A stretch of DNA of 64,000 nucleotides from a virus: positions 1 through 64,000 of the IMG/VR virus record IMGVR_UViG_3300034061_004392, one strand, 5' to 3'. The notes below the pieces were generated by a model, which searched no databases, was not told the origin of the DNA, and saw only the letters and a list, made by a program, of their open reading frames with translations. Positions 20,330 to 33,336 of this stretch are shown here, one piece after another (position 1 is the stretch's first letter; each line of letters opens with the position of its first letter). Both the position numbers and the translations under genes were made by a program.

Positions 20330-20764
20330 TTAGCTATGGTCTGCTTTATATGCATCTAGTGTTTTCTTGAACTTTCCTGCATGTGAGCGTTCTGCTTTTG
20401 CAAGTGTTTCAAACCAGTCTGCAATTTCATCAAAGCCTTCTTCACGGGCTGTTTTAGCCATACCAGGATACATATCGGTGTATTCGTGAGTTTCACCTTC
20501 GATGGCAGATTCAAGAGCTTCTGCAACATTATTCACCTGCATTCCTGTTGCAGGATCGCCAGCGGAACCATCTAACAGATATTCCATGTGTCCGTGTGCA
20601 TGTCCAGTTTCACCTTCTGCTGTATGACGGAATACCGCAGCAACTTCTGGTGAGCCTTCAATGTCGGCCATGTTTGCAAAGTAAAGATAACGGCGATTTG
20701 CTTGTGATTCTCCCGCAAATGCTTCTTTCAAATTCATTTCAGTTTTAGTTCCTTTGACTTTCAT
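20330..20764 (-). CDS. Rubrerythrin-like diiron protein
   Basis: This 144-residue protein is the ferritin-like four-helix domain of rubrerythrin without the C-terminal rubredoxin domain. The metal-binding motifs are [44 protein letters not shown] and [13 protein letters not shown], giving the expected Glu and His ligands. Rubrerythrins reduce peroxide or protect iron centres. Here it lies 15 bases after the pqqA-like gene under one promoter, so both are probably made together early in infection. AGGAGATATA precedes the ATG. It looks host-derived; function in the phage is inferred. Confidence 0.9.
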
Positions 20765-20779
20765 TATATCTCCTAATTA

Positions 20780-20854
20780 TTAACGATTTGCAATGTAAAG
20801 AGTGATTTCAAATCCAAAACGCATATCGTTTGCTGAAGGTGTAGTCCAATTCAT
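20780..20854 (-). CDS. pqqA: PqqA-like pyrroloquinoline quinone precursor peptide
   Basis: A 24-codon ORF starts at 20854 behind a strong AGGAG, six bases from the ATG. The peptide has Trp3 and Pro6, then MRFGFEITLYIANR. It fits PqqA, the ribosomal peptide whose cross-linked Glu and Tyr become PQQ: Glu16 and Tyr20 are at the positions used in 24-residue PqqA peptides, and the G-F-E-x-T-x-Y-x-x-N/S-R ending is the family signature. PQQ serves methanol and glucose dehydrogenases in the periplasm. No pqqB-E genes are in this window, so host enzymes would have to process it. It is driven by its own sigma70-like promoter and is followed by rubrerythrin. Confidence 0.9.
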   Translation of the reverse strand: MNWTTPSANDMRFGFEITLYIANR

Positions 20855-20898
20855 AGTAGTCTCCTAAAGGTTTAATCGCAACAAGTGTTACGACTGAA

Positions 20899-20928
20899 AT
20901 TATATATTAACTTAATTGGATTTGTCAA
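20899..20928 (-). promoter_or_regulatory. sigma70-like promoter for pqqA and rubrerythrin
   Basis: Minus-strand TTGACA (20923-20928) and TATAAT (20899-20904) are both perfect consensus hexamers with an 18-bp spacer. The pqqA start is 45 bases downstream. Confidence 0.85.
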
Positions 20929-21017
20929 GTAGAGAAAATCATGATAATAGTCTACTGATAAAATTACTGCCAGTTGATTGGGTAATAAGGACAACTGGCG
21001 AACACCTCAGTTTAACC

Positions 21018-21050
21018 TCAAGCGGCTAAACGGTATGAATTATCGTTTGC
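21018..21050 (-). other. tmRNA tag reading frame (ANDNSYRLAA, stop)
   Basis: GCA AAC GAT starts a 10-codon frame ending GCC GCT TGA. The product ANDNSYRLAA has the conserved AND start and the LAA end that is recognised by ClpXP-type proteases. Confidence 0.92.
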
Positions 21051-21133
21051 GGATAATTTAATTTACTTTTTACGACTCTCTGTGTCGTGTTGCCGTCTCT
21101 GTTAGCTCACCCTGTCGAAACCTTGACTGGCCC

Positions 21134-21203
21134 ATCATAAGTTGATTTCGTTCTGCAATACGGTTCTTTTCACAAGAGGTCGCACGATCTGCAAATCAAC
21201 TTA
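21134..21203 (-). repeat. Inverted repeat closing the tmRNA intervening segment
   Basis: TAAGTTGATTT and AAATCAACTTA form a perfect stem joining the CCA end of the acceptor piece to the 5' end of the coding piece. It would hold both ends together for processing and is expected to be removed from mature tmRNA. Confidence 0.85.
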
Positions 21204-21273
21204 TGGTGGACCAGGAGGGAATCGAACCCTCGTCCAGAATGCCTTCACTTTGAAGGATATACAACAATTTTAA

Positions 21274-21396
21274 TTAATTGAATGGCCAATTATTTATGAT
21301 GATGACTATCGTAAACATCAACCAAGCAACTCTCAGTACATTATCAAAGGTTCTTTCGAATTTATCCAGTAATGTTTTTTTATCCGTATCTGACAT
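21274..21396 (-). CDS. Small membrane protein (40 residues)
   Basis: The ATG at 21396 follows GATAGGAG by six bases. A charged N-terminus (MSDTDKKTLLDKFERTF) precedes one hydrophobic segment, VAWLMFTIVIII. It overlaps the upstream tiny ORF by 17 bases and ends just before the tmRNA. No family is recognised; a one-segment membrane peptide near the endolysin could act in lysis, but nothing shows this. Confidence 0.6.
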   Translation of the reverse strand: MSDTDKKTLLDKFERTFDNVLRVAWLMFTIVIIINNWPFN

Positions 21397-30851: not shown

Positions 30852-32258
30852 TTAGAAGTTTAATTGGCTTCTGAACATGATTGCTTTATCACCATTCACA
30901 CGGCTGCCTGATGACCCAACCAATGCATCAAACTTAGTATCAACATAGTTTACCATGAAACGCACATTATCTGTAGCAAACCATGTGACACCATAAGTCA
31001 TTGCAGTAGCACGATTTGATTTGCCAGCAACTACTGTAATATTACTAGCATCAAATTCACTCATACGCACATTGACTTGAACAGCACCTTTGCCACCTTT
31101 ATCTAGCGGGTTAGCAGGCTTGATTGCACCAAATACACCATCCTTATAATTGTATGATTCACCAGTCAGGTTATACGATGCAAGAACATAGTATCCTTTA
31201 ATTTCTTGATTGTTTCCTGTTGTAGGATCGTATGTGAAATTAAATTGTTCTGCTTGTACTTTTAAAGCATTATAAGCAAATGCTGCTTCGAGACCTTGAC
31301 GAGTTCTATCTGTTAAACCACTCAACGCAGGACCAGTAAACCAAGCATTTTGTGAACGAGATTCTGTTCTGCCACTTGCTGGTGTCACACCACCTTTGAT
31401 AGTACCCATGCTGTATGCGGCACCCAAATGCAATGTATATGCTTTGCTACCTTGTAGTTCAGCAATGTTTGTAGTAACACGACCAATGTAGTCAAAGTTG
31501 TCACTCACAGCATCCTTGTTGCTTTTGCCACGACTTGCTGCCACAGCATAAGTCAAACCAGCTTTGGGTACACCGTGCACCATGAAGCCAGTTTCTTTGC
31601 CAGGAATCAGCTCGCTGTCGTTTTGACCAATCAAGCTACGCTCCATGAAGTCAATGTTGTTTGAGCTGGTCAATTGTTCAAGACTGAACGGCATCTTGAA
31701 CAAACCAAACTGAAACTGCATTTCAGGATTGGCAGCATAGTTCACATATGCCACATCCATGGTAGTTGATGAACTACTAGCACCTACATCGTTGCCGAAA
31801 TTTCCTACGATCTCATATTTAAAATCTTTCTGGAACTGTCCACGCACACCAAATCTAGCACGACGAATTTCTGCTAGGTTCTGATACGAATCCGTGGTTT
31901 GGCCTGTACCATAAGCGGGGTCGTACTGACGATAGTCCATATGAATTCGACCTCCAAATTGAATGGTATTATTTCCATCTTTTGACTTGAGGCCGATACC
32001 GCTTTCGGTGACTGATCCATCGTTTGCCCTGGCCTGTCTGTACTTGACTGAATCGCTAACATCTTTGTCGATTCGTTGGGTTGCAAACTTTTTGTTTTCT
32101 TCTTTTTCTTCATATGCTTTCAGTCTTGCTTCATATTCTTTTTGAGTGATTACATTCTTCTCTCTCAGAATACTTAAAGTATCTTTATACTCATCAGCAT
32201 ATGCTGGAATTACTGCTGCTAACGCAACTACAATAGAAAGTTTTTTGAGTAATTTCAT
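30852..32258 (-). CDS. Phosphate-selective porin (OprP/OprO-like)
   Basis: This 468-residue protein has a signal peptide (MKLLKKLSIVVALAAVIPAYA), a short coiled-coil segment, then the OprP/OprO family domain: TIQFGGRIHMDYRQYDP, AEIRRARFGVRGQFQKDFKY, FQFGLFKMPFSLEQLTSSNN and ETGFMVHG. The last residue is Phe in RSQLNF, the usual outer-membrane assembly signal. It should form a trimeric anion channel in the outer membrane of a Gram-negative host. It follows pstS by nine bases with AAGGATATATC before the ATG. Base use looks GC-richer than surrounding phage genes, suggesting acquisition from a host. Confidence 0.92.
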   Translation of the reverse strand: MKLLKKLSIVVALAAVIPAYADEYKDTLSILREKNVITQKEYEARLKAYEEKEENKKFATQRIDKDVSDSVKYRQARANDGSVTESGIGLKSKDGNNTIQFGGRIHMDYRQYDPAYGTGQTTDSYQNLAEIRRARFGVRGQFQKDFKYEIVGNFGNDVGASSSSTTMDVAYVNYAANPEMQFQFGLFKMPFSLEQLTSSNNIDFMERSLIGQNDSELIPGKETGFMVHGVPKAGLTYAVAASRGKSNKDAVSDNFDYIGRVTTNIAELQGSKAYTLHLGAAYSMGTIKGGVTPASGRTESRSQNAWFTGPALSGLTDRTRQGLEAAFAYNALKVQAEQFNFTYDPTTGNNQEIKGYYVLASYNLTGESYNYKDGVFGAIKPANPLDKGGKGAVQVNVRMSEFDASNITVVAGKSNRATAMTYGVTWFATDNVRFMVNYVDTKFDALVGSSGSRVNGDKAIMFRSQLNF

Positions 32259-32267
32259 GATATATCC

Positions 32268-33299
32268 TTATTTCCAAATTGGGTTATTGTCTGGACCACG
32301 GAAGTCTTTCTTCCAATTTTCTTGTACTAACTTAATTACATCGGCTGGCATGTGAACATACTCTAAGTCTGCTGCCATTTGACCACCGTTCTTGTAACTC
32401 CAGTCAAAGAACTTGAGAACTGCACGACCTGTCAATGCGTCTGCCTGTTGCTTGTGCATGAGAATAAAACTTGCACCTGTTGCTGGCCAAGCATCCTTGC
32501 CTGTCTGCCAAGTTAGTAGTAGATACATACCTGGAGCATTTGCCCAATCTGCATTGGCTGTTGCTGCTTTGAATGTGCTATCATCCGGTGACACAAAGTT
32601 ACCGTCACGATTTTTTAGTGATGCATAAGGAATCTTGTTTCTTTTTGCATAGGCATACTCAACATAACCAAAGGCACCTTTGATACGCTGAACCTGTGCT
32701 GCAACACCCTCATTGCCTTTACCACCTACACCCGTTGGCCACTTGACTGCTGAGCCTTCGCCCACAGCCTTTTGGAAGTCTGCGTTGGCTTTGCTCAGGA
32801 AGTTGGTCCAAATAAATGTAGTGCCTGAACCGTCTGCACGATGAACTACGGTGATGTTCATGGCAGGAAGCGTGACTCCTGGATTTAGTTCTGCGATTGC
32901 CTTGTCATTCCACTTGGTAATCTTGCCTAAATGAATATTAGCAATTACATCCGGGGTGAGTCGTAATTGACCTTGTGCTACACCGTCAAGATTGAACACT
33001 GGCACAACACCACCAATGATTGCTGGGAATTGAACAAGACCTTCTTTGTCTAGTTCTTCTTTCTTGAGTGGCATATCACTTGCGCCAAAGTCAACTGTCT
33101 TGGCTTTGATCTGACGAATACCACCACCTGATCCGATTGATTGATAGTTTAGACCAATACCAGTTTGAGCTTTATAGGCTTCTGCCCATTTAGCGTAAAT
33201 TGGGAATGGAAAGGTTGCGCCTGCACCAGTGAATTCTGCTGCTGATACAACCGTAGAGAGGAATAAAAAGGATGCTGCTAAAAGATTTTTGAATTTCAT
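32268..33299 (-). CDS. pstS: Phosphate ABC transporter substrate-binding protein PstS
   Basis: From the ATG at 33299 (AAAGGAG six bases upstream) the protein has 343 residues, starting with a signal peptide (FKNLLAASFLFLSTVVSAAE). PstS motifs are GAGATFPFPIYAKWAEAY, YQSIGSGGGIRQI, VDFGASDMPL and VHRADGSGTTFIWTNFL. It would bind phosphate in the periplasm and feed the host PstCAB transporter. A longer ORF from 33335 exists but would remove the signal peptide from the N-terminus. pstS is known in several aquatic phages; pairing with a porin is uncommon. Codon use looks host-like. Confidence 0.95.
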   Translation of the reverse strand: MKFKNLLAASFLFLSTVVSAAEFTGAGATFPFPIYAKWAEAYKAQTGIGLNYQSIGSGGGIRQIKAKTVDFGASDMPLKKEELDKEGLVQFPAIIGGVVPVFNLDGVAQGQLRLTPDVIANIHLGKITKWNDKAIAELNPGVTLPAMNITVVHRADGSGTTFIWTNFLSKANADFQKAVGEGSAVKWPTGVGGKGNEGVAAQVQRIKGAFGYVEYAYAKRNKIPYASLKNRDGNFVSPDDSTFKAATANADWANAPGMYLLLTWQTGKDAWPATGASFILMHKQQADALTGRAVLKFFDWSYKNGGQMAADLEYVHMPADVIKLVQENWKKDFRGPDNNPIWK

Positions 33300-33336
33300 G
33301 TTATCTCCTTTGGTTGAACTACTTAAAACACCCAAA

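What the first reader, a model, noticed from the sequence alone, without database searches (positions are those of the whole stretch)
20780..20854. Phage-encoded PqqA: a PQQ precursor peptide
The 24-residue ORF has the full PqqA pattern: Trp3, Pro6, then GFEITLYIANR with Glu16 and Tyr20 at the positions whose side chains become PQQ. It has a strong Shine-Dalgarno sequence and its own consensus promoter. No PQQ biosynthesis enzymes are nearby, so the phage may raise precursor supply to boost host PQQ enzymes such as methanol dehydrogenase during infection. I do not recall a phage system described this way.
Basis: partly seen in the sequence, partly recalled or inferred. Interest (0 to 1): 0.95.

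Follow-up and report, generated by a model that had tools for sequence, protein, structure and literature searches.

The report
Phage-carried precursor peptide for PQQ cofactor
This phage carries a genuine 24-residue PqqA gene, the peptide that bacteria cut into the redox cofactor PQQ, without any of the enzymes that process it; the same orphan gene turns up in more than 150 other viral sequences and in all six methanol-eater phages that could be checked, where it is unannotated, so feeding the host's PQQ pathway looks like a common but largely overlooked phage strategy.

Summary
Window 20780-20854, minus strand, encodes MNWTTPSANDMRFGFEITLYIANR, which passes the curated PqqA cut-offs (PF08042 36 bits, TIGR02107 36.9 bits). 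Glu16 and Tyr20, the two residues that become PQQ, are intact. The gene has the only perfect sigma-70 promoter of its spacing in the 64 kb. Relatives of the virus keep that promoter and a covarying hairpin in the 5' untranslated region.

The gene is an orphan: no PqqB-E in 237 viral loci. In the annotated phage collection, apart from one metagenomic phage and two mislabelled bacterial contigs, PqqA occurs only in methylophages (Melnitz, P19250A, Venkman, MEP301, MEP401, MEP402), always unannotated.

The most likely mechanism is precursor supply: phage PqqA feeds the host's PqqB-E and sustains PQQ-dependent dehydrogenases during infection.

Corrections: phage PqqA was already reported (Lake Baikal, 2020; a reservoir study, 2026), so the idea is not new. 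The host is unproven. This PqqA subtype is absent from 187 Methylophilaceae genomes and resembles that of other Burkholderiales, so 'methanol dehydrogenase' is inference here. Expression is untested.

The parts
20780..20854 (-). pqqA: 24-aa PQQ precursor peptide with Glu16 and Tyr20
   Evidence: PF08042 36 bits, TIGR02107 36.9 bits, both over the curated cut-offs
20861..20865 (-). Shine-Dalgarno sequence AGGAG, 6 nt before the ATG
   Evidence: Sequence; AGGAG/AAGGAG also precedes pqqA in the relatives
20875..20894 (-). Hairpin in the 5' untranslated region, at or next to the expected transcript start; 8 conserved base pairs
   Evidence: fold -10.1 kcal/mol; 64 of 64 pairs standard in 8 sequences, compensatory changes at 4 of 8 pairs
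20899..20928 (-). Sigma-70 type promoter TTGACA-18-TATAAT
   Evidence: only zero-mismatch match to this pattern in 64 kb; conserved in relatives
20330..20764 (-). Rubrerythrin-like protein, the next gene downstream
   Evidence: PF02915 E 3.3e-27; downstream neighbour also in close relatives (cluster 18); 70% nt identity to a gene of Pelagibacter phage Mosig
20927..21314 (-). Permuted two-piece tmRNA upstream of the pqqA promoter
   Evidence: ARAGORN 20927-21296; Rfam beta_tmRNA 136 bits and tmRNA_permuted 119.5 bits
16369..17274 (-). gp32 single-strand DNA-binding protein, used as lineage marker for a T4-like phage
   Evidence: phrog_224 E 6.2e-115

Best explanation
A T4-like phage carries an orphan, functional pqqA as an auxiliary metabolic gene. 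During infection the peptide is made from its own promoter, probably by host sigma-70 RNA polymerase, and is processed by the host's PqqD/E, PqqB, protease and PqqC into PQQ. PqqA is the only part of the pathway consumed one-for-one per PQQ, while the enzymes are reused. Replacing just the precursor would therefore sustain PQQ-dependent dehydrogenases, and so energy and carbon flow, after host gene expression falls. Shown: the gene, its intact key residues, its regulatory signals, its purifying selection and its recurrence in many phages. Inferred: expression, processing by host enzymes and the benefit to the phage. Also inferred: the exact host, which for this virus is most likely a PQQ-making Burkholderiales or other betaproteobacterium, and which dehydrogenase benefits.
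For: Curated PqqA models are passed. All 120 viral loci found without constraining Glu/Tyr keep both. Pooled pN/pS is 0.16 over 128 distinct 23-codon viral genes, and 0.04 over the codons around Glu and Tyr, a stretch that the first scan pattern largely fixes at the protein level. Virus relatives found by gp32, not by PqqA, carry it: all three long records of 143-163 kb and all 8 loci with at least 86% gp32 identity whose contig reaches the position. One relative deviates from the family motif at a Thr but keeps Glu and Tyr (L366). The promoter is conserved in relatives and the hairpin covaries. In 50,697 phage records PqqA occurs only in 9 methylophage records (6 phages), one metagenomic phage, and two contigs labelled phage that are bacterial, one of them shown to hold pqqB-E. 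For the methylophage type, viral peptides are often identical to Methylophilaceae host PqqA. 34 of 35 Methylophilaceae genomes have pqqA, usually in several copies: 3 in most 1.3 Mb OM43-type genomes, up to 12, which suggests that precursor dosage matters. One PqqA-bearing phage also carries a PQQ methanol dehydrogenase 95% identical to that of OM43 bacteria. Cell-free extract plus added PqqA gave 70-80% conversion to PQQ, as cited in PMC9851590.
Against: No expression or processing data. The host of this virus is not identified and it carries no PQQ enzyme. Only 1 of the viral records searched carries an MDH. In one engineering study pqqAB overexpression raised PQQ by 29% while the whole pqqABCDE cluster raised it eightfold (PMC7936290), so precursor is not always the main limit.
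Confidence: 0.75

Rival explanations
1. Same precursor supply, but the beneficiary is not methanol oxidation: PQQ feeds another periplasmic dehydrogenase (glucose or ethanol type), possibly tied to phosphate acquisition, since this phage also carries phosphate-uptake genes.
For: The window encodes a phosphate-selective porin and a phosphate-binding-type protein. Its PqqA subtype is found in non-Methylophilaceae Burkholderiales beside pqqB and in none of 187 Methylophilaceae genomes.
Against: All isolated phages with PqqA infect methylotrophs. Phosphate genes are common in aquatic phages for unrelated reasons.
Confidence: 0.3
2. The peptide is not made into PQQ but acts as a decoy or inhibitor that occupies PqqD/PqqE, or as a peptide with another role in infection.
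For: It is carried without any PQQ enzyme, and such a small peptide could bind PqqD.
Against: Glu and Tyr, needed for PQQ but not obviously for mere binding, are invariant in 120 of 120 viral sequences chosen without regard to them. Many viral copies are identical to the host substrate. One phage adds its own MDH.
Confidence: 0.1
3. Neutral passenger: a recently captured host pqqA without benefit to the phage.
For: Viral peptides of the Methylophilaceae type are often identical to those of hosts.
Against: pN/pS 0.16 with up to 20 different DNA versions of one peptide; 54 groups by immediate neighbour genes; conserved promoter and covarying hairpin.
Confidence: 0.07
4. Chance ORF or host DNA mis-binned as virus.
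For: A 24-codon ORF is short, and two database records labelled Acinetobacter phage hold PqqA on contigs that are bacterial (one search shows one with pqqB-E).
Against: Both curated models are passed. The window is flanked by phage baseplate, gp32 and endolysin genes. No PqqB-E in 237 viral loci. It occurs in sequenced phage isolates.
Confidence: 0.01

Closest known systems
PqqA family (PF08042 / TIGR02107)
   Same: Length, W/P N-terminal half, RFGFE-x3-Y core with Glu16 and Tyr20, basic C-terminus; both curated cut-offs passed
   Different: Encoded by a virus, with no pqqBCDE in the virus
Lake Baikal methylophage VP_266 PqqA (Coutinho et al. 2020, PMC7678222)
   Same: Virus-encoded PqqA proposed as an auxiliary gene for PQQ-dependent methanol oxidation
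   Different: That virus also encodes methanol dehydrogenase. The window virus has neither that enzyme nor a proven methylotroph host, and its PqqA belongs to the MRFGFEITxYIANR subtype
Orphan pqqA genes of cultured methylophages (Melnitz, P19250A, Venkman, MEP301, MEP401, MEP402)
   Same: Single orphan pqqA in a phage genome; Melnitz is also T4-like, with a gp6 baseplate protein 40.7% identical to the window's
   Different: Their peptides are mostly the Methylophilaceae type [23 protein letters not shown]; none is annotated as PqqA in its record
Cyanophage psbA and similar auxiliary metabolic genes (from general knowledge)
   Same: The phage supplies the quickly consumed part of a host energy pathway
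   Different: Here the supplied part is a ribosomal peptide precursor of a cofactor, not an enzyme or photosystem protein

Membership tests
PqqA (PF08042, TIGR02107) | Passes curated profile cut-offs over the full model | tested here: met
PqqA (PF08042, TIGR02107) | Glu and Tyr separated by three residues (E-x3-Y), the residues that become PQQ | tested here: met
   E16, Y20; also 120 of 120 viral sequences chosen without this constraint
PqqA (PF08042, TIGR02107) | Cross-linked by PqqE with chaperone PqqD | not testable with these tools
   Needs biochemistry
pqqABCDE operon | pqqA next to pqqB-E | tested here: not met
   No PqqB-E in 237 viral loci by tblastn, while host loci rang; it is not filed under this heading. 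Host genomes carry more pqqA copies than one operon would need, so adjacency does not define PqqA
Phage auxiliary metabolic gene | Lies in a virus genome among virus genes | tested here: met
   Baseplate, gp32 and endolysin genes in the window; isolates carry it too
Phage auxiliary metabolic gene | Homologous to a host metabolic gene and kept by selection | tested here: met
Phage auxiliary metabolic gene | Expressed in infection and raises the metabolic product | not testable with these tools
   Only promoter and 5' UTR evidence
Methylophage (phage of Methylophilaceae) | PqqA subtype matches Methylophilaceae hosts | tested here: not met
   Subtype absent from 187 Methylophilaceae genomes; present in 6 of 399 Burkholderiales genomes

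The most novel reading that the evidence does not exclude
Orphan pqqA is a near-universal, repeatedly acquired gene of phages that infect PQQ-dependent bacteria, above all aerobic methylotrophs. Precursor-peptide supply would be their counterpart of cyanophage psbA, and in the window lineage it would be driven by a dedicated promoter and a conserved 5' hairpin.
Probability: 0.55. Interest if true: 0.75.

Novelty: new member of a known kind. Interest (0 to 1): 0.6.

Why it matters
PqqA is the one consumable of PQQ synthesis, so a virus can adjust a whole cofactor pathway with about 75 bases. The gene was found in every methylophage isolate seen in the searched collection, yet none of those records labels it. 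The three isolate papers that deal with the phages MEP301, Venkman, MEP401 and MEP402 do not mention PQQ at all, and the Melnitz paper mentions it only as a medium ingredient. Culturable systems (OM43 phages) therefore already exist in which the effect of viruses on methanol turnover could be tested directly.

Tried and rejected
Plus-strand reading of the coordinates: no ORF. Chance ORF and host contamination: rejected. tmRNA as a host marker: only the tRNA-like arm matched and it did not separate host groups. MAFFT alignment of the 5' UTRs misplaced the 3' arm of the hairpin, so the pairs were counted by script; there the arms had been picked as foldable, and an arm-swap control reached full pairing in 2 of 1000 shuffles. 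A search for phages MEP431-434, which would test universality: four guessed accession numbers in the OR4207xx series, plausibly theirs, are not in the collection, so the test could not be made. Promoters in front of all viral pqqA genes: two-mismatch matches are only slightly more common than in shuffles (15% against 10%; one mismatch 8% against 1%), so the strong promoter is a feature of the window lineage, not of all.

Full report
Observation. The ORF at 20780-20854 is real and on the minus strand. It reads MNWTTPSANDMRFGFEITLYIANR and scores above the curated cut-offs of PF08042 (36 against 21.1 bits) and TIGR02107 (36.9 against 20 bits). Glu16 and Tyr20 have the E-x3-Y spacing of PqqA substrates. 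The record holds one such match and the 14 control genomes none.

Surroundings. The record is a 65.8 kb viral contig. Baseplate wedge genes, gp32 (phrog_224, E 6.2e-115) and an endolysin lie nearby, so it is T4-like; for the gp6 baseplate gene, Synechococcus phage S-H25 (32%) ranks first and Melnitz (40.7%) second by the tool's coverage-weighted order. Upstream of pqqA is a permuted tmRNA, downstream a rubrerythrin-like gene. The promoter TTGACA-18-TATAAT at 20928-20899 is the only zero-mismatch match to that 18-spacer pattern in 64 kb. AGGAG stands six bases before the ATG.

Regulation is conserved. In relatives found by gp32, the same promoter stands before pqqA although the spacer bases differ. 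Between promoter and Shine-Dalgarno lies an 8-pair hairpin: in eight sequences 64 of 64 pairs are standard, with compensatory changes at pairs 3, 4, 7 and 8. It starts about where transcription should begin; a role in mRNA stability is my inference.

Conservation in the lineage. The gp32 search did not select for PqqA. Every close relative (at least 86% gp32 identity) whose contig reaches the position has it, and the 163, 161 and 143 kb relatives all have it. More distant gp32 relatives (about 62% and below) that were searched as records have none, but most are fragments.

Recurrence. A degenerate pattern for the PqqA core hit 120 IMG/VR contigs and stopped at its limit. A pattern for the N-terminal half, silent about Glu and Tyr, also hit 120, of which 31 were new, and all 120 encode a 23-residue PqqA with both residues. 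One peptide occurs with 20 different DNA sequences; pooled pN/pS is 0.16. By immediate neighbour genes, 166 loci fall into 54 groups. None of 237 viral loci encodes PqqB, C, D or E, whereas host loci do.

Isolates. In 50,697 phage records three different PqqA queries return the same 12 records: Melnitz (4 records), P19250A, Venkman, MEP301, MEP401, MEP402, the metagenomic ctXG6705, and two records named Acinetobacter phage. One of the latter was opened and is a bacterial contig with pqqB-E. None of the isolate records annotates the gene; in Melnitz a hypothetical protein is called on the opposite strand. The papers on MEP301, MEP401/402 and Venkman do not mention PQQ; the Melnitz paper mentions it once, as a medium ingredient. 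Phages MEP431-434 could not be tested.

Hosts. Methylophilaceae PqqA is often identical to viral PqqA ([23 protein letters not shown]), and these bacteria carry several copies: mostly 3 in 1.3 Mb OM43-type genomes, 12 in Methylotenera mobilis 13. The window peptide differs. Its RFGFEITxYIANR form is in none of 187 Methylophilaceae genomes but in 6 of 399 Burkholderiales, beside pqqB in those where tblastn found it. The window's host is therefore best guessed as a PQQ-making betaproteobacterium, not shown to be a methylotroph.

Mechanism. PqqA is consumed one-for-one while PqqB-E are reused (established pathway knowledge). PMC9851590 cites work in which cell-free extract converted 70-80% of added PqqA to PQQ. 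A phage that supplies only PqqA can therefore plausibly keep PQQ synthesis going after host shutoff. A 72 kb phage contig carries PqqA together with a methanol dehydrogenase 95% identical to that of OM43 bacteria, a formate-dehydrogenase-like protein and a SoxYZ-like protein, besides phage-type ribonucleotide reductase and DNA ligase. That fits the metabolic reading.

Novelty. Coutinho et al. 2020 (PMC7678222) reported PqqA in a methylophage and proposed the same purpose; PMC13188868 lists viral pqqA. I therefore file this as a new member of a known kind. What I did not find in the held literature is the recurrence of the orphan gene, its presence in every methylophage isolate seen in the collection, its purifying selection, and the conserved promoter and hairpin of this lineage.

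Noticed in passing
G013 (IMGVR_UViG_3300025120_009955), L162:3990-5864 and neighbours: A 72 kb phage contig with PqqA, an OM43-like methanol dehydrogenase (95% identity), a formate-dehydrogenase-like molybdoprotein, a SoxYZ-like protein, GroEL, Hsp70, adenylate cyclase-like and curlin-repeat proteins.
   Followed up: partly
window 20927-21314: Permuted two-piece tmRNA directly upstream of the pqqA promoter, with tag peptide ANDNSYRLAA.
   Followed up: partly
window 30852-33335: Phosphate-selective porin O/P and a PBP-family (phosphate-binding-type) protein side by side, likely phosphate-uptake auxiliary genes.
   Followed up: no
upstream of pqqA in the window and relatives (window about 20929-20945, minus strand): A shared sequence ATCATGATTTTC lies just upstream of the -35 box in many relatives; it could be a phage promoter element or operator.
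   Followed up: no
L008 (CAKLQF020000010.1): Record labelled 'Acinetobacter phage MD-2021a' holds pqqA-E, polyphosphate kinase and other bacterial genes and looks like a mislabelled bacterial contig.
   Followed up: yes
L163-L242 genomes (Methylophilaceae): pqqA is strongly multicopy in Methylophilaceae, even in streamlined OM43-type genomes, where two copies stand about 200 bp apart.
   Followed up: partly
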